From Corallococcus sp. EGB (GTDB lineage: Bacteria; Myxococcota; Myxococcia; Myxococcales; Myxococcaceae), in the NCBI RefSeq assembly GCF_019968905.1, contig NZ_CP079946.1:3286001-3350000 (forward strand): a stretch of DNA of 64,000 nucleotides, written 5' to 3'. Under the pieces are notes generated by a model, which was not told the DNA's origin, ran no database searches, and saw only the letters and a list, made by a program, of their open reading frames with translations. Numbering within the stretch: position 1 is the stretch's first letter; the number at the start of each line of letters is the position of its first letter. Made by a program: the position numbers and the translations under genes. Below are positions 1-61,587 of this stretch, in pieces.

Positions 1-3000
1 CGATGAGGCGCAGCGCGACGGGGAGGTTGTACGAGGCGTCGTCTGGAGTCAGCTGATCGAGGAACCAGAGGCGCTGCTGCGCGAACGAGAGCGGCAGGGG
101 GCCTTCGGTGCAGGTGCGCGTCAGGGATGGCAGACGCGAGCCGGTCGCGGCGCGCTGGAGGCGTTCAGCGAGGCTCGCGATGGTGGGGGCCTCGAAGAGG
201 GCGCGGAGGGGCAGTTCCACGTCGAGCGCGGCGCGCACGCGGGCCACCAACTGCGTGGCCAGCAGGGAGTGGCCTCCCAGCTCGAAGAAGTTGTCGGTGC
301 GGCCCACGGTGGGCACGCGAAGCACTTCGCTCCAGAGGGCCGCGAGCTTCTCCTCCAGCGGAGTCGAGGGAGCCTCGTAAGCATTCGAGGCGCGAAGCAT
401 GCTCGCGTCCGAAGCAGGAAGGGCCTTGCGGTCCACCTTGCCGTTGGCCGTCAGAGGCAGCGTCTCCAGGGAGACGAAGGCGGCGGGCACCATGTACTCG
501 GGCAGGTGCTGCTTGAGGTGGGAGCGCAGGGCCGTGACGTCGAGGGCGTCCCCGACGACGTAGGCGACGAGGCGCTTGTCGCCCGGGGAGTCCTCACGGG
601 CGATGACGACGGCGTCCTTCACGGCAGGGGCGGAGCGCAGGGCGTTCTCGACTTCGCCCAGCTCGATGCGGAAGCCGCGCACCTTCACCTGGGCGTCGAT
701 GCGGCCGACGAAGTCCAGCTGGCCATCCGCGCGCCAGCGCACCACGTCGCCCGTGCGGTAGAGGCGCTCGCCCGGAGTAGAGGAGAAAGGGTCCGGAATG
801 AAGCGCTCGGCAGTGAGGCCCGGCCGTCCCGCATACCCACGCGCCACGCCCACGCCGCCAATGTGCAACTCACCACGCACGCCGACGGGCACGGGCTGCC
901 CGTGCGGGTCGAGGACGTAGGCGCGCACGTTCGCCAGTGGCTTGCCGATGGACGGCACGTTCCCATCCGCCACCACCTCGCCGAAGGTGGCGATGACGGT
1001 GGCCTCAGTAGGGCCGTAGGTGTTGAGCAGGCGGCGCCCCGGCGCCCAGCGAGCGACGACGTCCGCGGGCAGGGCCTCACCGCCAGAGATGACGGTGCGC
1101 ACCTTGGGCAGTCCTTCAGGGGACGTCGCAGCCAGCGCGGCCGGCGTGAGGCTGACGACACTCAACTCCTGCTCCCGCAGCAGCACGGGCAGCGGGGCGC
1201 CCGGCATCAACTTCTCCAGCGGCGCGAGCACCAGCGTGGCGCCGTTGCAGAGCGTGGTGAAAATCTCCTCCACCGAGAGGTCGAAGCTGAGGCTGGCGAA
1301 CTGAAGCACGCGGCTGCCCGGGCCGATGCCGTACGCCACCGCCTCGTGGGTGACGAGGTTGGCGACGCTGCGGTGCTGCACCGCCGTACCCTTGGGCGTC
1401 CCCGTGCTGCCCGACGTGTAGAGCAGGTACGCCAGGTTCGCCGGCGTCACGCCCGTCACGGGTGCATCTGCCTGCTCAGCAGCGAGAGCGTCGCGCTCCG
1501 TATCAAGGCAGAGGGCACGGGTATGCAGTGCCTCCGGGAACCGGTCCACCAGTGCCTGCTGGGTAACGAGCACCTGCGCGGCGCTGTCCTCCAGCATGAA
1601 GGCCAGGCGCTCCCGGGGCAGGAGCGGATCCACGGGCACCCAGGCACCACCGGCCTTGAGGATGCCAAGGAGGCCGATGACGATATCGAGGGAGCGCTCG
1701 ACACTGAGTGCGACGCGGACCTCCGGGCCCACGCCGCGACGGCGCAGGGCATGGGCGAGCTGATTGGCGCGCGCGTCCAGCTGCGCGTACGTCAACTGCG
1801 TCCCCTCGAAGACAGCCGCCACGGTGTCGGGAGCGCGGTGCACCTGCGCCTCGAAGAGCGAGTGCATGCACGCCTCGGGGAACGGCGCCCGCGTGGCGTT
1901 CCACTCCACCAGCACCTGCTCGCGTTCCTCTCCCGCGAGCAACTGCAGCGACGAGACCTGCGCGTCAGGCTGCATGACTGCTTCTTCCAGAAGCACGCGG
2001 AGGTGCTCGGCCATGCGAGCGGCGGTGGAGGGGGTGAAGATGTCGGTCGTGTACTCGAGGTAGCCCTTGAGGCCGGCGTCGGACTCGAGCACCTGGAGTG
2101 TGAGGTCGAACTTGGCGGCGAAGGTGTCGAGCTCGAGTGCCTCCATCTTGACGCCCTCGATGGAGGAGGAGGCGCGGAAGGAGGCCTGGTAGGTGAGCAT
2201 CACCTGGAAGAAGGGAGTGCGGCCCGGAATGCGCTCGGGCTTCAACTCCTCCACGAGGCGCTCGATGGGGAGCTCCTGGTGCTCCTGGGCGGCGAGCACC
2301 GTCTCGCGCACCTGCCGCAGCAGGGTGCGGAAGGAGGAGCTGCCCGTGACGCGAGTGCGAAGCACCTGGGCGTTGACGAAGAGGCCGATGAGGCCCTCCA
2401 CCTCGCCGCGAGTGCGGCCCGCCATGGGGGAGCCGACGGTGACGTCGTCCTGGCCGGAGTAGCGGGCCATCAGCACCTGCCAGCCCGTCAGCAGCGCCAT
2501 GTAGAGGGATGCGCCCTCCTGCTGGGCGAGTGCCTTCAGTGAGTCCGTCAACTCGCGAGGCAGCAGCACGTCATGGCGTGCGCCTCGCCCGTCGCGCGTG
2601 GCGGGGCGAGGGAAGTCCGTGGGCAACTCCAGGGCGGAGGGCACGCCGGCCAGCTGGCGCTTCCAGTAATCAAGTTGCTTCTCCAGCCGGGGCCCCTGCA
2701 GCCACTCGCGCTGCCAGACGGCGAAGTCCGCGTACTGCACGGCCAGCGGAGGCAGGGGCACGGCCTGGCCCCGAGCGAGAGCGCCGTAGGCGAGCGCCAC
2801 CTCGCGCACCAGCAGCGTCATGGACCAACCGTCGGAGACGATGTGGTGCACCACCACGACGAGCAGGTGCTCCGTCGGCGAGGACGTCAGCAGTTGCGCG
2901 CGCAGCAGCGGCCCCTTCGCGAGGTCGAAGGGCTGAGCGGCGGCCTCACGTGCCAGACGCCACGCTTCTTCCGGAGGCGAGCCCGAGACGTCCTTGCGCT

Positions 3001-3373
3001 CCAGGGTGAGCACCGGCTCCGGGGACACCACCTGCACGGGCCCGGAAGCATCTTCGCGGAAGGTGGTGCGCAGCACCTCGTGACGGCGCACCACTTCGCG
3101 CAGCGCGCGCTCCAGGAGGGCCACGTCGAGCGGGCCTTCCAGGCGCACGGCCATGGGCACGTTGTAGAGCGAGGTGCCGGGCTGAAGCTGGTCAATGAAC
3201 CAGAGGCGCTGCTGGGCGAAGGCGAGGGGCAGGGGACGCGAGCGGTCCTGCACCGGGATGAGGCCCTGGGCGGAAGTGCCGGCGGTGGCCTTCTGCGCGG
3301 CCATCTTCTTGAGCAACTCGGCGCGCTTCTCCGGTGAGAGGTTCGCGATCCGCTTCGACAGCTCCTGGCTCAT
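1..3373 (-). CDS. NRPS 3 of the tandem array, partial (C-A-T then start of next C)
   Basis: Partial gene: 5' end at 3373, 3' end beyond the left edge, about 1124 codons visible. The start is ATG at 3373, with GGAG 8 nt upstream in a context shared with the two other NRPS genes. Domains in order are a 25-residue basic N-terminal stretch (LSKRIANLSPEKR), a C domain with HHIVSDGWS, an A domain with the TSGSTGTPKG core and NGKVDRKALP, and a carrier domain with GGHSLLA near nt 265. The first motif (SFAQQRLWFLDQL) of a second C domain is at nt 50-90. The A-domain pocket reads DLESIGTVI (X, Lys-like), as in module 1 of the neighbouring NRPS. The DNA matches 20241-23613 at a constant offset of 20,240 bp. 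It assembles the start of a peptide, possibly N-acylated because the first domain is a C domain. By collinearity with NRPS 2 the next residue may be Leu, but that part is not in the window. Confidence 0.95.
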   Translation of the reverse strand, partial: MSQELSKRIANLSPEKRAELLKKMAAQKATAGTSAQGLIPVQDRSRPLPLAFAQQRLWFIDQLQPGTSLYNVPMAVRLEGPLDVALLERALREVVRRHEVLRTTFREDASGPVQVVSPEPVLTLERKDVSGSPPEEAWRLAREAAAQPFDLAKGPLLRAQLLTSSPTEHLLVVVVHHIVSDGWSMTLLVREVALAYGALARGQAVPLPPLAVQYADFAVWQREWLQGPRLEKQLDYWKRQLAGVPSALELPTDFPRPATRDGRGARHDVLLPRELTDSLKALAQQEGASLYMALLTGWQVLMARYSGQDDVTVGSPMAGRTRGEVEGLIGLFVNAQVLRTRVTGSSSFRTLLRQVRETVLAAQEHQELPIERLVEELKPERIPGRTPFFQVMLTYQASFRASSSIEGVKMEALELDTFAAKFDLTLQVLESDAGLKGYLEYTTDIFTPSTAARMAEHLRVLLEEAVMQPDAQVSSLQLLAGEEREQVLVEWNATRAPFPEACMHSLFEAQVHRAPDTVAAVFEGTQLTYAQLDARANQLAHALRRRGVGPEVRVALSVERSLDIVIGLLGILKAGGAWVPVDPLLPRERLAFMLEDSAAQVLVTQQALVDRFPEALHTRALCLDTERDALAAEQADAPVTGVTPANLAYLLYTSGSTGTPKGTAVQHRSVANLVTHEAVAYGIGPGSRVLQFASLSFDLSVEEIFTTLCNGATLVLAPLEKLMPGAPLPVLLREQELSVVSLTPAALAATSPEGLPKVRTVISGGEALPADVVARWAPGRRLLNTYGPTEATVIATFGEVVADGNVPSIGKPLANVRAYVLDPHGQPVPVGVRGELHIGGVGVARGYAGRPGLTAERFIPDPFSSTPGERLYRTGDVVRWRADGQLDFVGRIDAQVKVRGFRIELGEVENALRSAPAVKDAVVIAREDSPGDKRLVAYVVGDALDVTALRSHLKQHLPEYMVPAAFVSLETLPLTANGKVDRKALPASDASMLRASNAYEAPSTPLEEKLAALWSEVLRVPTVGRTDNFFELGGHSLLATQLVARVRAALDVELPLRALFEAPTIASLAERLQRAATGSRLPSLTRTCTEGPLPLSFAQQRLWFLDQLTPDDASYNLPVALRLI
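1..3373. repeat. 5' NRPS repeat, copy in NRPS 3
   Basis: Near-identical to 20241-23613 at a fixed offset of 20,240 bp. It covers the first C-A-T module and the start of the next C domain. Visible divergent patches are the T-C linker (about 90-180) and about 1455-1535 in the A domain. Confidence 0.9.
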
Positions 3374-3526
3374 CTCGTGTACTCCGCACTCGGGGATGCC
3401 ATTGCGCACGAGCACCACCCGGGTCGGAGGGGCTCGTGAGAACTCGGACTGCTGGTGATACTGAATTGCCGATCTGGGCCGCTCTCACGGGGGAAGCGCG
3501 GCGGTGGGCATATTCGCGGTGGTTAC

Positions 3527-3554
3527 ATTATTCGCTAACGACAAGACGTGTCAT
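3527..3554 (-). promoter_or_regulatory. Predicted sigma-70-like promoter of NRPS 3 and its leader
   Basis: On the minus strand ATGACA (3554-3549) and AATAAT (3532-3527) are separated by 16 nt, a good match to housekeeping -35/-10 boxes. The same pair with the same spacer length lies at the same distance (150-155 nt) from the start codon of the two other NRPS genes. The roughly 150-nt leader that follows (3374-3526) is partly conserved in all three, chiefly next to the promoter and around GGAGTACAYGAG before the start codon. In 3555-3733 I see only a small inverted repeat, GGGGAT-N6-ATCCCC, near 3588-3605. Confidence 0.6.
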
Positions 3555-3733
3555 GAGGGCGGCTCGACGCTCCTGGAGCGCAACCCGGGGATGAATAAAT
3601 CCCCGCGTTTACAGCCCTCACCATAGGAGGGGGCTCTGACGTTGGAGTGCCCGCACGACCCAAAAAGCCGGATCTCATGTGAGACCCTGGCGAGTTGGGA
3701 CTACCAGGAAACCCGGTGGGTGATTGGTGCGGT

Positions 3734-3765
3734 GCGCGGGGCTTCCTGGCGAGGAATCCCCGCGC
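3734..3765 (-). terminator. Hairpin after NRPS 2
   Basis: An 8-bp stem (GCGCGGGG/CCCCGCGC) is extended past one mismatch by a 5-bp stem (TTCCT/AGGAA) closed by a GGCG loop. It lies 30 nt beyond the NRPS 2 stop codon and upstream of the NRPS 3 promoter. No T-tract follows on the minus strand, so it may be a weak terminator, an RNA-stabilising structure or both. Confidence 0.5.
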
Positions 3766-3795
3766 CCGCATGTCCGGGGACAAGAAGGACGGGAT

Positions 3796-23613
<19,818 letters not shown>

Positions 23614-23614
23614 C

Positions 23615-23758
23615 TCATGTACTCCGCACTCGGGGCCGCCACTGCGCACGAGTCCCCCTGAGCCGGAGGCGCTCACGGGAACCCGGGCATGTTTCTGGTG
23701 CCGGATTGCCACCCTGCGCTGCTCTCCCGGGAGCAGTGCGAAGGTGGGGTAAATTCAT
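23615..23758 (-). other. Possible leader ORF before NRPS 2
   Basis: A 47-codon ORF (MNLPHLRTAPGRAAQG...) starts 9 nt after the predicted -10 box, so it would be nearly leaderless. It ends in TGA one base before the NRPS 2 ATG (TGAGATG). The NRPS 1 leader has an ORF of the same length whose first half is similar (VDLPHPRASPGRAAQG). The second halves are in different frames, and the NRPS 3 leader has a frameshift here, so conservation may be of DNA or RNA rather than peptide. It has no ribosome binding site. Confidence 0.25.
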
Positions 23759-23767
23759 ATGGATGAG

Positions 23768-23795
23768 ATTATTCCGCCTACAGTGGTCCTGTCAT
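23768..23795 (-). promoter_or_regulatory. Predicted sigma-70-like promoter of NRPS 2 and its leader
   Basis: ATGACA (23795-23790), a 16-nt spacer and AATAAT (23773-23768) on the minus strand, 155 nt before the start codon. This matches the promoters of NRPS 1 and NRPS 3. The leader contains the perfect palindrome CTCCCGGGAG, within the inverted repeat CTGCTC/GAGCAG near 23721-23738, which is also present (as CTCCCGGGAG) in the NRPS 1 leader. The element ATGAATAAATCC at 23816-23827 recurs upstream of the NRPS 3 promoter at 3591-3602. In 23828-24038 I see no further gene. Confidence 0.6.
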
Positions 23796-24038
23796 GAGGG
23801 TGGAGATACGCCCACATGAATAAATCCAGGTATTTGCGGGATTGTTATGGTTCCCCGAGTACATGGATGGAAGGACGCCGGATGTCTTCCCGGGTGAGGC
23901 CTTCTCCCCGCGTCTTCTTTGTCGCGGAGGAAGACGAAAGGAGCCGGACCCCACGCGTCGGCCATCCACGATCCATCGCCTGAGCAGTGCGGATCACGTC
24001 GTGAAACATGAATCGAAGGCAGCGCCGAGCGAAGCGTA

Positions 24039-24068
24039 CCCACCGTCGTGATGAGCCACGACGGTGGG
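24039..24068 (-). terminator. Strong hairpin after NRPS 1
   Basis: A perfect 12-bp stem (CCCACCGTCGTG/CACGACGGTGGG) with a 6-nt loop begins 27 nt after the NRPS 1 stop codon. There is no clear T-tract, but the stem strength and position suit a transcription terminator. With the NRPS 2 promoter downstream, it makes NRPS 1 and NRPS 2 separate transcription units. Confidence 0.65.
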
Positions 24069-24095
24069 GCACCTGGCTTCACTCCGGACCTGGAT

Positions 24096-47101
<23,006 letters not shown>

Positions 47102-47105
<4 letters not shown>

Positions 47106-47245: not shown

Positions 47246-47254
47246 AATGGCCAC

Positions 47255-47282
47255 ACTATTCCGTGGGAAGACGGACTGTCAT
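47255..47282 (-). promoter_or_regulatory. Predicted sigma-70-like promoter of NRPS 1 and its leader
   Basis: ATGACA (47282-47277), a 16-nt spacer and AATAGT (47260-47255) on the minus strand, 150 nt before the NRPS 1 start. The leader shares CTCCCGGGAG, GGATTG and the ribosome-binding context with the NRPS 2 leader. In 47283-47425 I see nothing beyond a C5/G5 inverted repeat near 47404-47420. Confidence 0.6.
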
Positions 47283-47425
47283 GGGGCCCATCCACCGAAA
47301 GTCCGAGTGAATTCGCGTATCTACGGGAAGAGAAGGGATCCCCGAACATGCCACCGGAAGGACTCACGGTGTCGCTCAGAGGGGAACCTGCTCGCGGAGT
47401 CGTCCCCCCGCCTGGAGGGGGATCA

Positions 47426-47473: not shown

Positions 47474-48304
47474 TCAGCCCGCCTTCGCGAGCGGCGGCGC
47501 CCCGGCCAGCAGGGCCGGCGTGGGCACGGTGTAGCCCACGAGCAGGAGGACCTCCGCGATGGCATCACCGACGTTGGCCTGCGTGTCGTTGAACTCGGTG
47601 GGCTTGCAGAAGATGCACACCGCGAGGATGGGGCCCTGGAGGGTGAACTCCGCGATCTCCACCTGGGGCGCGGGCGTGGCCTGGACGCCCTTCACCGTGG
47701 GCAGGCGCTCCAGCAGGACCTGCTGCAGCACCCGTACGTCCACGCCGTGCATCAGCGGCACCTTGACCGTCATCTTGCGGTGCGGGTGGTGGCTGTAGTT
47801 GATGATGTTGTCGCTGAACATCTGGTTGTTGCCCACGGAGATCCGCACGTTGTCGGACGTGTCCATCGTGGTGACGAACAGGCCGATCTCCTGGACGATG
47901 CCCACGACGCCACCGGCTTCGATCTCCTCGCCCACGCGGAAGGGGCGCAGCACCAGGAGGAAGATGCCCGCGGCGAAGTTGGCCAGCAGCCCGGACCACG
48001 CGGCGCCAATGGCGATGCCCGCGGCGGCGATGAGCGCGGCGAAGGACGTGGTCTCCACGCCCATCAACCCCAGGATGCCGACGATCAGCATCAGGGTGAG
48101 CGAGCCGGTGAAGAGCGACCCGACGTAGCGGATCAGCGTGGCGTCCAGCTGCCGCCGCTGAAGGCCCATGTCCAGCACCTTGCGGAAGCCGGCGATGACC
48201 GTCCGCCCGATGAACCAGATGAACAGCGCCCCGATGACCTTGAGCAGCAGCGGGAGCGCTTCGGTCAGGGCCAGTGACTTCAGTTGAACAATGACTTCAT
48301 CCAT
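47474..48304 (-). CDS. Small-conductance mechanosensitive channel (MscS family)
   Basis: A 276-aa inner-membrane protein, close to the length of E. coli MscS (286 aa). Three hydrophobic segments lie in the first ~125 residues. The third is the pore helix (GIAIGAAWSGLLANFAAG), followed by the family motif around FLLVLRPFRVGEEIE that starts the beta domain. The C-terminal cytoplasmic domain (PLMHGVDVRVLQQVLLER onward) completes the fold. MscS channels open under membrane tension and release osmolytes during hypo-osmotic shock. The ATG at 48304 is the first Met and fits the family start. The gene is not part of the NRPS transcription unit: a hairpin and then the NRPS 1 promoter follow it. Confidence 0.93.
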   Translation of the reverse strand: MDEVIVQLKSLALTEALPLLLKVIGALFIWFIGRTVIAGFRKVLDMGLQRRQLDATLIRYVGSLFTGSLTLMLIVGILGLMGVETTSFAALIAAAGIAIGAAWSGLLANFAAGIFLLVLRPFRVGEEIEAGGVVGIVQEIGLFVTTMDTSDNVRISVGNNQMFSDNIINYSHHPHRKMTVKVPLMHGVDVRVLQQVLLERLPTVKGVQATPAPQVEIAEFTLQGPILAVCIFCKPTEFNDTQANVGDAIAEVLLLVGYTVPTPALLAGAPPLAKAG

Positions 48305-55364: not shown

Positions 55365-56141
55365 TCAACCGAACTTCCCGGTGACGTAGTCCTCCGTGCG
55401 CTTCTCGTGGGGGTTGGTGAAGATCTGCTCCGTGGGGCCGCACTCCACCAATTCCCCCATGTAGAAGAAAGCCGTCTGGTCGCTCACCCGCGCGGCCTGC
55501 TGCATGTTGTGGGTCACGATGGCGATGGTGTACGTGGCCTTGAGCTCGTGGATGAGCTCTTCAATCTTCGCCGTGGCGATGGGGTCCAGCGCGGACGCGG
55601 GCTCGTCCATCAGCAGCACCTCCGGCTCCACCGCCAGCGCCCGCGCGATGCACAGGCGCTGCTGCTGGCCGCCGGACAGGCCCAGGGCGCTTTCCTCCAG
55701 GCGGTCCTTCACCTCGTCCCACAGCGCCGCGCCGCGCAGGGACTTCTCCACGCGCGCGGCCAGCTTCGCCCTGTCCTTGAGCCCGCCCACGCGCAGGCCG
55801 TAGGCGACGTTCTCGAAGATGGACTTGGGGAAGGGGTTGGACTTCTGGAACACCATGCCCACGCGGCGGCGCAGGTCCACCACATCCAGGGAGCGGTCGT
55901 GGATGCTCCGGCCGTCCAGGAACACGCTGCCGTCGTGGCTCGCGCCGGGGATGAGGTCGTTCATCCGGTTGAGCGAGCGCAGGAAGGTGGACTTGCCGCA
56001 CCCGGACGGGCCGATGAGCGCCGTCACCTTGTGCTCGGGGACGGCCAGGCTCACCTGCTTGATGGCCACCTTGCTGCCGTAGCGCAGGGTGAGCTCGCGG
56101 GCTTCCATCTTGTTGCGCGGCGTGGCGGAGGAGAGGGGCAT
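55365..56141 (-). CDS. pstB: Phosphate ABC transporter ATP-binding protein PstB
   Basis: A 258-aa ABC ATPase of the high-affinity phosphate importer. Walker A is GPSGCGKST (44-52), the Q-loop is in VFQKSNPFP, the signature is LSGGQQQR, and Walker B is [12 protein letters not shown], with the switch His in IVTHNM. The ATG at 56141 is taken as start; an internal ATG at codon 12 ([11 protein letters not shown]) is a fair alternative. A longer open frame upstream is an out-of-frame shadow of pstA. The gap to pstA is 14 nt. Confidence 0.96.
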
Positions 56142-56155
56142 GGGAGCAGGGAACG

Positions 56156-57067
56156 TCAGTGTCCGGCCGCGGCCTTGCGGCGCGTGCGCGTGCGGATGAG
56201 GACCGCGACCAGGTTCAGGGCGAAGGTGAGCAGGAGCAGCACCAGCACCGTGGCGTACAGCAACGGGCGGGTGGCCTCCACGTCCGGCGACTGCGTGGCC
56301 AGCACGTAGGTGTGGTAGCCCAGGTGCATGAACTGCGAGTTCAGGCTCGTGGGGAGATCCGGCAGGAAGTACGCAGCGCCGGTGAAGAGGATGGGGGCCA
56401 CCTCGCCCGCGCCGCGGGAGATGGCCAGCACCGCGCCGGTGAGGATGCCCGGCAGCGCGCCCGGCAGCACCACCCGCGCCAGCGTCTGTGACTGGGTGGC
56501 CCCCAGCGCGAGGCTCGCGGTGCGCTGCTCCTGCGGCACGGCGCGCAGGGCCTCTTCCGTGGACACGATGACGACGGGCAGGGTGAGCACCGCCAGCGTC
56601 AGCGACGCCCAGAGGATGCCCGGCTGGGCCCAGTGCAGCTCCTGGTAGCCCAGCGCGTGGTCCAGCCCCTTGCCCACGAAGAGGATGAAGAAGCCCAGGC
56701 CGAAGAGGCCGAACACGATGGAGGGCACGCCCGCCAGGTTCGCCACCGCCACGCGCACCGCGCGGGCCAGGAAGCTGGAGGGCGGCGCGTACTCGTGCAG
56801 GTACACCGCCGTGAGCACGCCCACCGGCATCACCGCCAGGGTCATGAGCAGCGTGAGCGCGGCGGTGCCGAAGAGGGCGGGGAAGATGCCGCCGCCCATC
56901 ATCCCGTCCGTGGGCGCCTCCGTGAGGAAGCGCCAGGAGACGTGGCTCCAGCCGCCCCGGACGATGTCCAGGAGGATGAGGCCCAGCATGGCCACGATGA
57001 CGAACGCGGCCAGCCCCGTGAGCGACACGAGCGACAGGCCCACGACCTTGCGCGTGGTGTGCTTCAC
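56156..57067 (-). CDS. pstA: Phosphate ABC transporter permease PstA
   Basis: A 303-aa inner-membrane permease with about six membrane segments and the binding-protein-dependent transport loop ([24 protein letters not shown]). Start is GTG at 57067 ([14 protein letters not shown]) with GGAGG upstream. The GTG overlaps the pstC stop codon (GTGA), indicating translational coupling. PstA pairs with PstC to form the channel. Confidence 0.96.
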
Positions 57068-58080
57068 CCCGCACCTCCCTTGAGCCGCTGGATGACCTTG
57101 CGCGTCCACATCCCGGCGAGCATGTTCAGCACGAAGGTGAAGAGGAACAGCTCCACGCCGATGAAGAAGAGCAGCGCGTAGTGCGGGCTGCCCACCACCA
57201 CCTCGCCCATCTCCGCGGCGATGGTGGCCGACAGCGAGCGCACGGAGTCCCCCAGGTTCCACGACACGATGGCCGCGTTGCCGGAGGCCATGAGGACGAT
57301 CATCGTCTCACCGATGGCGCGCCCGAAGCCCAGCACGCACGCGGCGAGGATGCCGGGGGCCGCCGCCGGGAGCACCACCTTCCACGCCGTCTCCCAGGGC
57401 GTGGCCCCCAGCGCCAGGGACGCCTCGCGGTAGCTGCGCGGCACGGCGGTGAGCGCGTCCTCCGTCACCGTGAAGATGACCGGCACGATGGCCAGCGCCA
57501 GGCCCAGCCCCGCCACGACGGCGTTGAGCCGGGAGGTGAAGCCGAAGACGTCCTGGAGGAAGGTGGCCATCACCATCAGCGCGAAGAAGCCCAGCACCAC
57601 GGACGGGATGCCGGCGAGCAATTCGATGGTGGGCTTGAGGACCTCGCGCAGGCGGCGCGGGGCGAACTCCGCGGCGAACAGCGCGCCGAAGATGCCCAGG
57701 GGGACCGCCACCACCATGGACACGAGCGTCGTCTTCAGCGTGCCGACGAACAGCGGAATCATGCTGACCTTGGGCACGCTGGACACCGGCTGCCACACGT
57801 AGGCCAGCGGCTTTCCCTTCCGCACCACCTGCGGAAGGAACATCTTGGAGAAGCTGGCCTCCTCGCGCGCCGCCGCGTCGGTGACGAGCGTGAGCGCCTC
57901 CTTCGCCACGAAGACGAGGATGAGCACCAGCGCGGCGATGCCGGTGAAGGCCACCACGGTGATCAACCCCGCGATGGCCCTCTCCTTCCATTGCCGTCGC
58001 CGGGCCGCGGGCGACAGCGTGGGCTGCGCCACCGGGGGCGCGAGGTCCTGCTCCTGCATGACGGCCTGTCTATCCAACAT
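57064..58080 (-). CDS. pstC: Phosphate ABC transporter permease PstC
   Basis: A 338-aa permease with a cytoplasmic N-terminal tail of about 35 residues, then six or so membrane segments. The periplasmic part between the first two is longer than in PstA. The EAA-type loop is [23 protein letters not shown]. Start is ATG 58080; a second ATG at codon 8 is possible. It lies 37 nt after pstS, and that gap contains a candidate Pho box. Confidence 0.96.
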
Positions 58081-58095
58081 GGGACCCCCGCGCCG

Positions 58096-58113
58096 GGTGA
58101 CAATCGCGTGACG
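58096..58113 (-). promoter_or_regulatory. Candidate Pho box between pstS and pstC
   Basis: CGTCACG-CGAT-TGTCACC on the minus strand has the 7-4-7 direct-repeat spacing of PhoB sites, with the GTCA core in both repeats. Its place inside the operon could give pstCAB extra PhoB-dependent expression, or the match may be chance in GC-rich DNA. Confidence 0.4.
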
Positions 58114-58117
58114 CCGA

Positions 58118-58942
58118 CTACTTCACAGGGAAGTAGCCGACCTGCGTGACGATGGCCTGACCTTCCGCGGACAGCGTGAAGTCGATGAAGGCCTTGGCCT
58201 CGCCGGCGGGCTTGTTGCGCAGGTAGAAGAAGAGGTCGCGCGACAGCGGGTACTTGCCGCTCTTCACGTTCTCCGCGTTGGGGGCGAAGGCCTCGTTGCC
58301 CTTCTTCACCTTCAGCTCCTTGATGCCCTTGGCGTACGCGGCGCCGCCGTAGCCAATGCCGTTCTTCTCCTTGGCCACCGCGTTGACGACGGCGGCGGTG
58401 CCCGGGAGCGTCTGCGCGGAGGCCGCGAAGTCGTCCCCGCCCAGCACGGTGTCCTTCACGAACACGTAGGTGCCGGAGGAGTTCTCACGCGAGTACAGGA
58501 CGATGGGGGCGTCCGCGCCGCCCACGGCCTTCCACGACGTGGTGTCGCCCAGGTAGATGTCCTTGAGCTGCTCCACGGAGAGCGCGTCCACCTTGTTGGA
58601 CTCGTTGACGTAGAAGGTGACGCCGTCCTTGGCCACGGAGATGGCGGTGGGCGGCGTGTTGTAGCGGGCGCGCAGCTTCTCCTCCTCCGCCTCCTTGATT
58701 TCACGGCTGGACATGGCGATGTCCGTGGTGCCGTTCTGCAGGGCCGCCAGGCCCGTGCCGGAGCCGCCGCCCGTCACCTGGATCTTCGTGGCGGGGTTCT
58801 TCTTCATGAACGCCTCGGCCCAGCGCTGGACGAGGATGACCATGGTGTCCGAGCCCTTCACGGTCACCGTGCCTGCCTGGGCGGTGAGCGGGAGGACGAC
58901 GAGCCCGAAGGCGACGAAGCTGGAAAGCAGTGTCTTCTTCAT
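58118..58942 (-). CDS. pstS: Phosphate-binding protein PstS
   Basis: A 274-aa periplasmic binding protein. A signal peptide (MKKTLLSSFVAFGLVVLPLT, cleavage after AQA near residue 23) precedes the mature protein. Phosphate-binding elements of the family are visible: KGSDTM, GGGSGTG, MSSREIK and NSSGTYVFVK. The ATG at 58942 has GAGGAG 7 nt upstream. The gene begins 12 nt after the porin stop, so the two are probably cotranscribed. It delivers phosphate to PstCAB. Confidence 0.97.
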   Translation of the reverse strand: MKKTLLSSFVAFGLVVLPLTAQAGTVTVKGSDTMVILVQRWAEAFMKKNPATKIQVTGGGSGTGLAALQNGTTDIAMSSREIKEAEEEKLRARYNTPPTAISVAKDGVTFYVNESNKVDALSVEQLKDIYLGDTTSWKAVGGADAPIVLYSRENSSGTYVFVKDTVLGGDDFAASAQTLPGTAAVVNAVAKEKNGIGYGGAAYAKGIKELKVKKGNEAFAPNAENVKSGKYPLSRDLFFYLRNKPAGEAKAFIDFTLSAEGQAIVTQVGYFPVK

Positions 58943-58954
58943 GGGGTGACTCCT

Positions 58955-60217
58955 CTAGAAACGGGCCTGCATCTGCAGGGTGAACAGGTTGTCGTGCGGG
59001 TCCAATGCCTGGGCCACGACGTGCGTGATGGGGATTTCGTAGATGGCGGAAACCTTCAGGTTCTCCCCGAAGTGGTGCTGGAGGACGAAGCCCAGCGTGT
59101 CGACGGTGTTGTCCGCGCCCGGCACGTCACCCACGGCGACGTTCGCCTGGCCGTTGTGCGGGTCGAAGGTGTCGTAGCGGACGGCCACCGCGTCGTTGAG
59201 CCCGATGTTCTGCACGAGCAGCAGGTACCAGCCGTGCGCGGGCACGTTCAGGTGGGTGGCGTTGTTGGCGGCGCCGTAGGTGCGCCCGGCGATGAACTCG
59301 CCCTTGATGGCGGTGCCGCCCAGGGGAATCACGTCGAAGTAGGCCTGGAGGTCCGCGCCGATGCGGGTGCGCTCGTAGGCGCGGCGGAAGGGGTCCGTGG
59401 CCAGCCGGCCCATGTCATGGCCGTACCAGCCGGAGATGCCACCGGAGAGCCACTTCAGGTCGAAGCCCAGGTGCCCGACGATGTCCTTCTCCTTGTCGTT
59501 GTCCTGGGTGGTGCCGCTGTCGGTGCCGTTGCCGTCGAAGACGCCCACCGCGAGCCGCAGGAACTTGTAGCGGCCGTTCACCTTCGCGCCGCGGTCGCGC
59601 TCGCTGGGGAGCATGTTGCGCACCACGCGGCTGCGCTCGGGGAACTCGCGGTCGCTGGAGGACTGGGGGCCCTCGTAGCCGAAGGGCCACTTCATCTGGC
59701 CCAGGGTGACGGACAGCTGCTGCTTGGTGCCGGGGACGAAGAGGGTGGCCTCCGCGTCCTTGAGCGTCACGCCCGCGGGCACCGCGTCGATCTGCAGCAT
59801 GAACTGCGACCACTCGGTGGTGTACGTGGCCTTCAAGCGGCCCCGGCGGACGCCGAAGCGGCTGTAGCCGCCCGCGCCGGTGTCATCCAGGTCCTGCAGG
59901 TACTGATAGCGGGCCTGGACATAGCCGGAGATGCGCAGCTTCTTGAGCGCGGACAGGTCGTTCTTCGTCTCGACGTTCTGCTCCTCCAGCGCCTCCACGC
60001 GGTGCTCGTCCGCCGTCAGCCGCTCGTCGATGGAGGGCGACATCTCCGGGACGGTGGGGGCGTTGGCGCGCGGGGGGGCGGGCTCCGTGGAGGACGGCTC
60101 CGCCGCCGCGCGCGGCTCGGAGGCCGGCGGGGTGGAGACCGCTTCCTGGGAGGTGGTGGCCTGGGCCATGGAGGTGCTGGAGCTCAGCAGGGTGAGGGCA
60201 ACGAGGAGTGGGCGCAT
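58955..60217 (-). CDS. Outer-membrane porin, OprP/OprO-like (phosphate-selective family)
   Basis: A 420-aa outer-membrane protein: signal peptide (about 1-19, ending SMAQA), a Pro/Ala-rich stretch (about 25-60), a short coiled-coil (EHRVEALEEQNVETKNDL), then a beta-barrel starting at ISGYVQARYQY and ending in the C-terminal Phe (QMQARF) used by the barrel assembly machinery. WPFGYEG and RDRGAKVNGRYKFL resemble OprP-family barrels. Its place directly before pstS and behind a Pho box argues that it brings phosphate or polyphosphate across the outer membrane; the anion specificity is inferred. Confidence 0.88.
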   Translation of the reverse strand: MRPLLVALTLLSSSTSMAQATTSQEAVSTPPASEPRAAAEPSSTEPAPPRANAPTVPEMSPSIDERLTADEHRVEALEEQNVETKNDLSALKKLRISGYVQARYQYLQDLDDTGAGGYSRFGVRRGRLKATYTTEWSQFMLQIDAVPAGVTLKDAEATLFVPGTKQQLSVTLGQMKWPFGYEGPQSSSDREFPERSRVVRNMLPSERDRGAKVNGRYKFLRLAVGVFDGNGTDSGTTQDNDKEKDIVGHLGFDLKWLSGGISGWYGHDMGRLATDPFRRAYERTRIGADLQAYFDVIPLGGTAIKGEFIAGRTYGAANNATHLNVPAHGWYLLLVQNIGLNDAVAVRYDTFDPHNGQANVAVGDVPGADNTVDTLGFVLQHHFGENLKVSAIYEIPITHVVAQALDPHDNLFTLQMQARF

Positions 60218-60296
60218 AGAAGGTCGGCGGGCGTCTCGGGGGTGTCGAGAACGCGTGACGATCTATGGGCTGGATGTGGCCGTTTAACGGCCCTTT

Positions 60297-60314
60297 CGTG
60301 ACAAATGCGTAACG
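60297..60314 (-). promoter_or_regulatory. Candidate Pho box upstream of the porin-pst operon
   Basis: CGTTACG-CATT-TGTCACG on the minus strand is a 7-4-7 direct repeat like the PhoB consensus, 80-97 nt before the porin start. The perfect dyad GGCCGTT-A-AACGGCC (60278-60292) follows 4 nt downstream and could be part of the promoter, an operator, or the 3' end signal of the regulator gene. Confidence 0.55.
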
Positions 60315-60329
60315 GAAGGGCCCGGGGGC

Positions 60330-61019
60330 CTACCCTGCGGCCGGATCCACGATGCGGTAGCCGACACCGCGAACCGTCTCCAGGAGGGAGCGTGCGGGGC
60401 CCAGTTTGTCGCGCAGCCGCATCACGTGCGTGTCGATGGTGCGCGTCTCCAGGGCACTGGACAGGCCCCAGACCTGCTCCAGGAGCTGCTCGCGCGTCTG
60501 CACCCGGCCCAGCCGCGCCATGAGGAACTCCAGCAGGCGGAACTCCAGCGCGGTGAGGGGCGTCTCCTTCTCCTCCACGAAGAAGCGGTGCTGGGTGACG
60601 TCCAGGCGCAGGGGGCCCAGCGCCAGGGGCGGCGTGCCCTCCTGGGGCGAGGAGGTGCGCCGGAGGATGGCCTTGAGCCGGAGCACCAGCTCGCGCACGG
60701 AGAAGGGCTTGACGACGTAGTCGTCCGCGCCGACCTCGAAGCCCCGGATGCGGTCCGCCTCCTCGCTCTTGGCGGTGAGCATGACGATGAGCACGTCACG
60801 CAGGCGGGGGTTGGCGCGCAGGTGGCGGCAGACCTCGATGCCGGACAGGTCCGGCAGCATCAGGTCCAGCAGCACCACGTCCGGGGGCTGCTCGCGGGCG
60901 GCGGTGAGCGCCGCCTCCCCGGTGAAGGCCACGCGGGTGGTGAAGCCCGCGCCGCGCAGGTTGAAGTCGATGAGCTCGGCGAGGTCACGCTCGTCGTCGA
61001 CGATGAGTACGTGGGACAT
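60330..61019 (-). CDS. phoB: PhoB-type response regulator (OmpR family)
   Basis: A 229-aa two-domain regulator. The receiver domain (about 1-120) has IVDDERDL, phospho-acceptor Asp in LLDLMLPDLSG, MLTAKSEE and VVKPFSV. The winged-helix DNA-binding domain (about 130-228) has the recognition region TRTIDTHVMRLRDKL and ends in VRGVGYRI. The length equals that of E. coli PhoB. Start is ATG 61019 (MSHVLIVDD); ATG 61028 is 3 codons earlier. It lies 112 nt upstream of the porin-pst genes, which supports a phosphate role. No PhoR kinase gene is in the window. Confidence 0.88.
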   Translation of the reverse strand: MSHVLIVDDERDLAELIDFNLRGAGFTTRVAFTGEAALTAAREQPPDVVLLDLMLPDLSGIEVCRHLRANPRLRDVLIVMLTAKSEEADRIRGFEVGADDYVVKPFSVRELVLRLKAILRRTSSPQEGTPPLALGPLRLDVTQHRFFVEEKETPLTALEFRLLEFLMARLGRVQTREQLLEQVWGLSSALETRTIDTHVMRLRDKLGPARSLLETVRGVGYRIVDPAAG

Positions 61020-61107
61020 GGCGGGCATGTACTGTGCGCGCACCGCTTCGCGCCCACGTGACGCGCTGGCAACAAGTGCGTCACGTCCGTCACGCCCGAA
61101 GAGGGAG

Positions 61108-61587
61108 TCACGGGCGCCGCAGGGAGCGGCCCGGTGCCGCCATCCATTGCAGGGCGAACTCGCGGCCCTCGGCGCGCAGGGCGACGGCGCAGCCCTTGCG
61201 GAGCTTGTCCGGCAGGGCATGGCCCAGCGCCAGCGCCGCGGCGCGTTCCAAGGAGGGATTGTGTCCCACCAGCGCCCAGCCCGGGCCCACGTCGCGCGCC
61301 AGCTTGAGCACGTTGCGCGCCGCGCCCTTCATGGGGACGAGCGCGGGGTGGACCTCCACGTGGGACAGCCCGAGCGCGTCCGCGAGCAGCTCCGCGGTCT
61401 GCACCGCGCGCACCAGCGGGCTGGTGATGATGCCCATGAGCGGCGTGAGGCGCGTGAGCTTCTTCGCGTGCTGACGGAAGGCGGCGCGGCCCTGGGGCGT
61501 GAGGGCGCGGGCCTCGTCGCCCAGGGCGTTGGAGTCCTCGGCCACGGCGTGGCGCACGAGGAGGAGGGGCAGGTCGCGTTCAGCCAT
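61108..61587 (-). CDS. sixA: Phosphohistidine phosphatase, SixA family
   Basis: A 159-aa histidine-phosphatase-superfamily protein. The catalytic motif is LLVRHAVAEDS (RHxxA), the second Arg is in SPLVRAVQTAE and the second His is in LVGHNPSLE. The length fits SixA, which removes phosphate from phosphohistidine of phosphorelay or phosphotransferase proteins. It is 88 nt upstream of the PhoB-type gene in the same direction, so a link to that signalling pathway is possible but not shown. Confidence 0.87.
   Translation of the reverse strand: MAERDLPLLLVRHAVAEDSNALGDEARALTPQGRAAFRQHAKKLTRLTPLMGIITSPLVRAVQTAELLADALGLSHVEVHPALVPMKGAARNVLKLARDVGPGWALVGHNPSLERAAALALGHALPDKLRKGCAVALRAEGREFALQWMAAPGRSLRRP

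What the first reader, a model, noticed from the sequence alone, without database searches (positions are those of the whole stretch)
1..47105. Tandem array of three giant NRPS paralogs, with the two complete ones each a stand-alone assembly line
Three head-to-tail genes start with the same ~255 residues and the same promoter. Both complete ones (6605 and 7669 aa) end with their own thioesterase. In ordinary NRPS clusters consecutive genes encode successive parts of one line, and only the last has the release domain. Here the layout implies a family of related peptides made in parallel from one locus by paralogous single-protein synthetases, which I do not recognise as a described cluster type.
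Basis: partly seen in the sequence, partly recalled or inferred. Interest (0 to 1): 0.85.

Follow-up and report, generated by a model that had tools for sequence, protein, structure and literature searches.

The report
Three parallel giant peptide-making enzymes
A soil predator bacterium (Corallococcus) carries, side by side, three sister genes for giant enzymes that each appear to build their own short peptide from start to finish; they share a rare switch and seem to swap building-block selector parts with each other, which offers a natural model for how such assembly lines evolve.

Summary
The array is 7 + 6 + 9 plain C-A-T modules with three thioesterases. The same three-gene array lies on one contig in three other Corallococcus genomes, so it is no assembly error; two species have a natural site without it between the same flanking genes. 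All 12 genes start about 180 bp after a CATGACA-N14/15-GAATA box; in the window's 9.43-Mb genome a slightly wider form of that box, within 2 mismatches, occurs only before these three genes and one distant paralogue. Selectivity codes predict related all-L 6-9-mers, e.g. Gly-basic-Leu-Glu-Val-Ala-Val and basic-Leu-Ala-Val-Ala-Ala. A domains of one code are homogenised within each genome across the three genes, C and T domains much less; thioesterases of the two Val-ending lines are homogenised too. Most likely these are three parallel, co-expressed lines kept by selection and rearranged by A-domain exchange. The type is not undescribed: Streptomyces cpp and ergot lpsA1/lpsA2 are precedents. 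New here are three lines with release in cis, a dedicated promoter box and array-limited concerted evolution. Products and co-expression are inferred only.

The parts
24096..47105 (-). NRPS gene 1 (first in transcription order), 7669 aa, seven C-A-T modules + TE; codes Gly - basic - Leu - Glu - Val - Ala - Val
3796..23613 (-). NRPS gene 2, 6605 aa, six C-A-T modules + TE; codes basic - Leu - Ala - Val-like - Ala - Ala
1..3373 (-). start of NRPS gene 3, which continues left of the window to genome base 3260028 (window base 1 is genome base 3286001); 9781 aa, nine C-A-T modules + TE; codes basic - Leu - Glu - Val - Val-like - Glu - Ala - Ala - Val
47253..47283 (-). promoter-like box of gene 1 (CATGACA-N15-GAATAGTGT), 178 bp before the ATG
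23766..23796 (-). promoter-like box of gene 2 (CATGACA-N15-GAATAATCT), 183 bp before the ATG; matches the sigma-70 consensus at 10 of 12
3525..3555 (-). promoter-like box of gene 3 (CATGACA-N15-GAATAATGT), 182 bp before the ATG
46347..47105 (-). first 253 codons of gene 1 (leader + donor half of the first C domain), near-identical in the three genes
22855..23613 (-). first 253 codons of gene 2, same
2615..3373 (-). first 253 codons of gene 3, same
42526..45706 (-). unit present in gene 1 only (Gly A domain, T1, C2; about 3.2 kb, ends approximate): an A-T-C unit between the first C domain and the basic-residue A domain that follow each other directly in genes 2 and 3
   Evidence: about 80% identity to genes 2/3 up to gene-1 base ~1400, about 60% or less alike after it, 97-100% again from base ~4590
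24147..24905 (-). thioesterase domain of gene 1
3853..4608 (-). thioesterase domain of gene 2
47474..48304 (-). flanking mechanosensitive-channel gene (not part of the array): next to gene 1 in G000, G003, G007, G013 and G014, and next to the array-free site in G010 and G015; found in 9 of 10 genomes asked

Best explanation
A 73-kb chromosomal locus that consists only of three paralogous single-protein NRPS assembly lines working in parallel. Each line loads the same kind of N-terminal donor with its first C domain (the donor half is near-identical in all three), elongates with 6, 7 or 9 plain C-A-T modules that use a small alphabet (Gly, a basic residue, Leu, Glu/Gln, Val, Ala), and releases its own peptide with its own thioesterase. 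The three are switched on together from copies of one promoter box that the genome otherwise carries only before a fourth, distant family member. The locus evolves like a gene family: module number and order change between species, and A-domain cassettes of the same specificity are exchanged among the three genes, which keeps them alike within a genome while the peptides diverge. Shown: anatomy, conservation, box copies, homogenisation pattern, purifying selection on the two parts tested (first 253 codons and TE). Inferred: specificities, box function, co-expression, parallel products, N-terminal cap, all-L configuration, biological role.
For: Anatomy of three complete lines, each with TE. Same three-gene array on one contig in four genomes; all 12 genes open, 94 of 94 modules with C, A and T motifs (T: 87 LGGHS, 7 MGGHS) and 12 of 12 TEs with GWSLGG. 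First 253 residues at 80% identity or more in 14 of 16 genomes of the genus and in 0 of the 80 other family genomes (up to 28 candidates scored per genome); 2 genomes of a sister genus at 69-70%. Box before 12 of 12 genes at 176-184 bp; 3 sites in the genome for the strict form, 4 for the wider form within 2 mismatches, all before family NRPSs; the sister genus has a one-mismatch site 177 bp before its homologue. Concerted evolution: nearest neighbour in the same genome for 75 of 94 A domains, against 47, 48 and 48 of 94 for C N-lobe, C C-lobe and T; by 100-codon window 78-81 of 94 over most of the A domain, 41-48 over the first 400 columns (C) and 48.5 over T, permuted means 18-19, permuted maxima 30-38. 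TEs of genes 1 and 3 (both end on Val) are 97.0, 93.9, 86.2 and 93.1% identical within a genome, gene 2 (ends on Ala) 77.8-82.8% to them. Exchange does not reach the paralogue about 260 kb away (Ala A domains 0.751 to the own array, 0.752 to other genomes' arrays). Ka/Ks 0.15-0.45 for TE, 0.18 for the first 253 codons.
Against: No product, transcript or activity is known; nothing here measures expression. No transporter, resistance, MbtH or tailoring gene was found next to the array (one MbtH match in the genome, at 5.84 Mb). Codes rest on the ten-residue rule and partly on recall; the basic residue may be Lys or Arg, and DAQDLGVVDK reads as Glu or Gln. Whether the first C domain is a true acyl-starter C is not settled: first-position C domains of the array and the paralogue form one clade, and two solved C domains that I recall as starter type score slightly better with C1 than with internal C2 (7c1h 67.5 against 62.3 bits; 4jn3 63.1 against not listed at 1e-13), but both C1 and C2 are far nearer to Txo1 (185 and 201 bits). 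C and T domains too have same-genome nearest neighbours more often than permuted labels, so exchange is not A-only. One-mismatch box sites of untraced context exist in G007, G081 and G085.
Confidence: 0.8

Rival explanations
1. The three genes are successive parts of one 22-module line, and the internal thioesterases are idle or used for intermediate release.
For: Head to tail on one strand with only 422-482 bp between them; each begins with a C domain that could in principle take an upstream peptide.
Against: Every gene has a TE with GWSLGG in all four genomes, its own box and the same donor half of the first C domain in the window genome; module counts vary gene by gene between genomes, with the gene-1 type at 8 modules in draft G005 and 7 in draft G012.
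Confidence: 0.05
2. Three lines exist but are used alternately (conditions or life stages), or only one is active; the array is a store of variants rather than a co-produced family.
For: No expression data; DNA around the three boxes differs outside the core.
Against: Same core box at nearly the same distance in 12 of 12 genes and no broken frame or lost motif in any of the 12.
Confidence: 0.15
3. Assembly artefact: collapsed or duplicated modules.
For: Exact repeats of up to 1195 bases lie inside the array, and in several drafts of the genus the gene starts lie at contig ends.
Against: Three other assemblies have the same three genes on one contig between the same flanking genes, with other module counts.
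Confidence: 0.02

Closest known systems
cpp cluster of Streptomyces cacaoi (BE-18257 A-C and pentaminomycins), PMC7827011 (abstract and passages)
   Same: Two NRPS genes in tandem in one cluster, each a whole five-module line shown by heterologous expression to make its own peptide family.
   Different: cpp lacks any TE domain; one stand-alone PBP-type enzyme is proposed to release both; E domains are present, and P450, regulatory and other genes lie in the cluster; two lines, not three; no homogenisation in the passages read.
Ergot alkaloid lpsA1/lpsA2 of Claviceps purpurea, PMC8704706 (passages)
   Same: Tandem-duplicated paralogous NRPSs with different A-domain specificities yield related peptides; recombinational shuffling between copies is suggested.
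   Different: Fungal, trimodular, part of a larger pathway, lpsA2 reported broken in some strains; here three open 6-9-module lines in all four genomes read.
Wollamide/desotamide bifurcated pathway, PMC9205934 (abstract and passages)
   Same: Whole-gene duplication plus intragenomic A-domain recombination creates a second product.
   Different: Only the last, bimodular NRPS is duplicated and shares the rest of the line; here entire lines are duplicated.
Concerted evolution in daptomycin/A54145/CDA clusters, PMC4256081 (passages)
   Same: Domains of one cluster resemble each other more than domains in related clusters.
   Different: There A and most C domains within one product's cluster; here between three parallel lines and strongest in A.

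Membership tests
Type I (linear, colinear) NRPS assembly line | ordered C-A-T modules with catalytic motifs | tested here: met
   94 of 94 modules in 12 genes
Type I (linear, colinear) NRPS assembly line | release domain at the end of the line | tested here: met
   TE on each of 12 genes
Type I (linear, colinear) NRPS assembly line | product follows the codes | not testable with these tools
   needs mass spectrometry of deletion mutants
Single cluster with parallel NRPS lines (cpp, lpsA1/lpsA2 kind) | two or more paralogous complete lines side by side | tested here: met
Single cluster with parallel NRPS lines (cpp, lpsA1/lpsA2 kind) | each line makes its own peptide | not testable with these tools
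   inferred from separate TE, box and codes
Single cluster with parallel NRPS lines (cpp, lpsA1/lpsA2 kind) | shared accessory or release gene in the cluster (seen in cpp; not needed for the kind) | tested here: not met
   no gene between the three; Pfam of 20 neighbouring frames on both sides shows no release, tailoring or MbtH gene beside them
Lipopeptide NRPS | starter-type first C domain | tested here: inconclusive
   one clade with the paralogue's C1, apart from internal C; only a slight preference for solved starter C domains
D-residue-containing NRPS | epimerisation domains | tested here: not met
   module spacing and motifs leave no room for E in the 22 modules; dual C/E activity was not tested

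The most novel reading that the evidence does not exclude
A dedicated, co-regulated family of giant NRPS genes (three in tandem plus one distant) that behaves like a diversity-generating locus: each species maintains several parallel lines from one promoter type and re-deals A-domain cassettes among them, with exchange largely between same-code cassettes and between thioesterases that release the same last residue, so that a small mixed library of related peptides, not one compound, is what selection maintains.
Probability: 0.3. Interest if true: 0.8.

Novelty: new variant of a known kind. Interest (0 to 1): 0.6.

Why it matters
NRPS engineering asks where nature cuts and pastes. Here are three parallel lines in at least four genomes that exchange parts, giving many natural before-and-after pairs: the homogenised unit runs from about the C-A linker through the A domain, gene 1 holds one extra A-T-C unit whose two joints both lie near the C-A linker, and TEs track the last residue. 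The locus also predicts a family of related peptides in most Corallococcus species, findable by mass spectrometry.

Tried and rejected
Self-BLAST of the three genes at 95-96% identity returned nothing beyond self hits and was replaced by exact matches and 600-bp windows. An early reading, that gene 1's private stretch begins inside its first C domain, was dropped: one search shows C1 still about 80% alike to its end, so the sharp drop after base 760 marks the end of a homogenised tract, and the extra unit is A-T-C. A search for published ten-residue codes found no paper, and the tables of PMC12283262 are not in the held text, so several code assignments stay recalled. Papers on this locus or its product were sought in searches, and on the layout in 27 and 60 (listings and starts of abstracts only); I recognised none that describes this locus. 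That is no proof of absence: only open-licence papers are held. Solved A domains helped little, because chains with two A domains score twice; for the Ala code the best chain with one A domain was McyA (506.9 bits). Considered and rejected: assembly error, one 22-module line, decaying duplicates. Not done: expression analysis, structure prediction, Pfam on genes 1 and 3, domain annotation of the other giant NRPSs.

Full report
What is there. The window is bases 3286001-3350000 of a single 9,431,171-base contig. Three NRPS genes lie head to tail on the minus strand: gene 1 (window 47105-24096, 7669 aa), gene 2 (23613-3796, 6605 aa) and gene 3, which starts at 3373 and was followed out of the window to genome base 3260028 (9781 aa). 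They hold 7, 6 and 9 modules, each with one C, A and T motif, and each gene ends in a thioesterase (Pfam on the last 4934 residues of gene 2 only). Spacing leaves no room for epimerisation or other inserted domains. The array's 22 C domains are part of 96 over Pfam's cut-off found in this genome (100 candidates were scored). Single-gene giants are common here: 7 of the 14 thioesterase hits over the cut-off, three of them the array's, lie in open frames of 6652-12349 aa.

Who it is. The best named hits to the first 253 residues, 83-86% identical, are Corallococcus carmarthensis and Corallococcus sp. CA053C (own or very near genomes may be left out there), so the organism is a Corallococcus.

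Not an artefact. Of 16 genomes of the genus, 14 have this start at 80% identity or more; none of 80 other family genomes does, and two genomes of a sister genus have one match each at 69-70% (cut-offs 1e-90 and 1e-92). I read the loci of the three other genomes in which the three starts lie on one contig (G003, G013, G007): each has exactly three genes in the same order, between the same flanking genes, all with TE. The two genus members without a match, G010 and G015, have those flanking genes about 3 and 2 kb apart: homology to our genome stops 57-288 bp short of the end of gene 3 and resumes about 370 bp before gene 1. The DNA in between is alike in these two (85% over 1235 aligned bases) and absent from ours, so the array may have replaced something. 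The array is a discrete 73-kb block of three genes.

Predicted peptides. Ten-residue codes (B = basic, DLESIGTVIK, nearest to a Lys code I recall and also like an Arg code quoted in PMC12283262; V includes Val-like codes). Gene 1: window genome G-B-L-E-V-A-V; G003 and G013 G-B-L-E-A-A-E-V; G007 G-B-L-E-V-V-E-A-V. Gene 2: window genome and G007 B-L-A-V-A-A; G003 B-Q-V-V-A-A-A; G013 B-L-A-V-A-A-A. Gene 3: window genome B-L-E-V-V-E-A-A-V; G003, G013 and G007 B-Q-V-A-V-E-A-A-V. Five complete genes or paralogues from other stretches were also read: drafts G005 G-B-L-E-V-A-E-V, G012 G-B-L-E-V-A-V and B-L-V-V-A-A-A-V, G008 B-L-V-V-A-A-A-V (in the last two the basic code ends in VK instead of IK, and 7 of 8 C domains carry HHxxxDG), and the 2.97-Mb paralogue below. 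Leu, Val and Gly are close to codes quoted in PMC12283262 (DAWFLGNVVK, DALWIGGTFK, DILQLGMIWK); DAQDLGVVDK is said there to read Glu or Gln; Ala and Glu are recalled.

A rare switch. Upstream DNA of the 12 genes aligns around CATGACA-N14/15-GAATA, 176-184 bp before the ATG; before gene 2 it scores 10 of 12 as a sigma-70-type promoter. The strict form with a 14-17 spacer occurs 3 times in the genome, before the three genes, and 0 times backwards. A wider form, drawn up to include the paralogue's box seen, gives 4 sites within 2 mismatches: the three and the start of a nine-module paralogue at 2.97 Mb (codes V-V-V-A-A-A-B-A-V). Because the pattern was made from these sites, the informative part is that there is no fifth. 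In 59 family genomes (5 of the genus), its 14 zero-mismatch sites all fall in the four array-bearing Corallococcus genomes of the sample (G000 4, G005 4, G007 3, G014 3) and none in G010, which lacks the array; gene 1 of G007 is missed because its spacer is 14. One-mismatch sites are one in G014, 177 bp-type sites before the homologues of the two sister-genus genomes, whose first code is also Gly-like, and three of untraced context (G007, G081, G085). Two-mismatch sites are scattered through many genomes, and the backwards control also gives some. Some zero-mismatch sites in the drafts lie at contig ends and were not traced to a gene.

How it evolves. Within the window genome the first 253 codons have Ks 0.025-0.030, against a mean of 0.337 between genomes; in the other three genomes gene 1 differs from genes 2 and 3 by Ks 0.20-0.31, and genes 2 and 3 from each other by 0.07-0.12. 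In the window genome gene 1 is 95-100% identical to the others up to base about 760, about 80% to the end of C1 (base about 1400), then holds a unit the others lack (Gly A domain, T, C2) and is 97-100% identical again from base about 4590: one A-T-C unit gained or lost near the C-A linker. Since the sister genus also starts with a Gly-like code, loss from an ancestor of genes 2 and 3 is as likely as gain. Within the window genome same-code A domains are mostly 91-99% identical across genes, C domains mostly 77-90%, with exceptions such as the last C of genes 1 and 3 (99-100%). Over 94 modules of four genomes the nearest neighbour lies in the same genome for 75 A domains, but for 47, 48 and 48 of the C N-lobes, C C-lobes and T domains. 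In 100-codon windows (Val-like codes pooled) the figure is 78-81 of 94 over most of the A domain, 71 at its end, 59 at the C-A linker and 41-48.5 elsewhere, while labels permuted within code classes give means of 18-19 and maxima of 30-38. C and T values also exceed the permuted ones, so exchange or duplication within a genome touches them too. Thioesterases of genes 1 and 3, whose last code is Val in all four genomes, are 97.0, 93.9, 86.2 and 93.1% identical within a genome, above any same-gene value between those genomes for the genome concerned, while gene 2, ending on Ala, stays at 77.8-82.8% to them. A domains of the paralogue about 260 kb away are not drawn in: Ala 0.751 to the own array, 0.752 to foreign arrays. 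TE Ka/Ks is 0.15-0.45.

Mechanism. From this I infer three parallel lines, co-expressed from one promoter type, with a common N-terminal donor (near-identical donor half of C1) and separate release. The donor may be an acyl group, making lipopeptides, but C1 could not be classed: it forms a clade with the paralogue's C1, yet solved C domains that I recall as starter type score only slightly better with C1 than with C2 and far below Txo1. No transporter or tailoring gene was found beside the array, and the one MbtH match lies about 2.5 Mb away. A biological role, such as predation or surface activity, is not addressed by the data.

What is known. Tandem whole NRPSs in one cluster with separate products are published (PMC7827011: abstract and passages; PMC8704706: passages), duplicated NRPSs with A-domain recombination too (PMC9205934: abstract and passages), and concerted evolution within NRPS clusters (PMC4256081: passages). 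I therefore call it a new variant of a known kind: three lines with release in cis, no accessory genes beside them, a dedicated promoter box, wide conservation in the genus, and exchange that largely respects the code.

Noticed in passing
G000:C1:2971316-3000569 (L105, L106): Fourth family member: nine-module single-gene NRPS with TE, codes V-V-V-A-A-A-basic-A-V, with the same promoter box; its own four Ala A domains are 92-98.5% identical to each other but about 75% to those of the array.
   Followed up: partly
G013:C1:4816253-4817014: The start of a similar paralogue in G013 (66% identical to the query) has one in-frame TGA inside the matched stretch.
   Followed up: no
L117 about 3415-5424 (G010), L118 about 2798-4038 (G015): At the array-free site both genomes carry DNA, 85% alike between them, that has no match in our genome's region (bar 36 bases in G010); the array may have replaced it.
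   Followed up: partly
G000, whole genome: Very rich in giant NRPSs: open frames of 12349, 11005, 10518 and 9782 aa with thioesterase matches besides the array.
   Followed up: no
window 55365-61220 (-): Beyond the array lies a phosphate-uptake-like set: ABC ATPase, permease, PBP-like binding protein, porin O/P-like protein and a response regulator.
   Followed up: no
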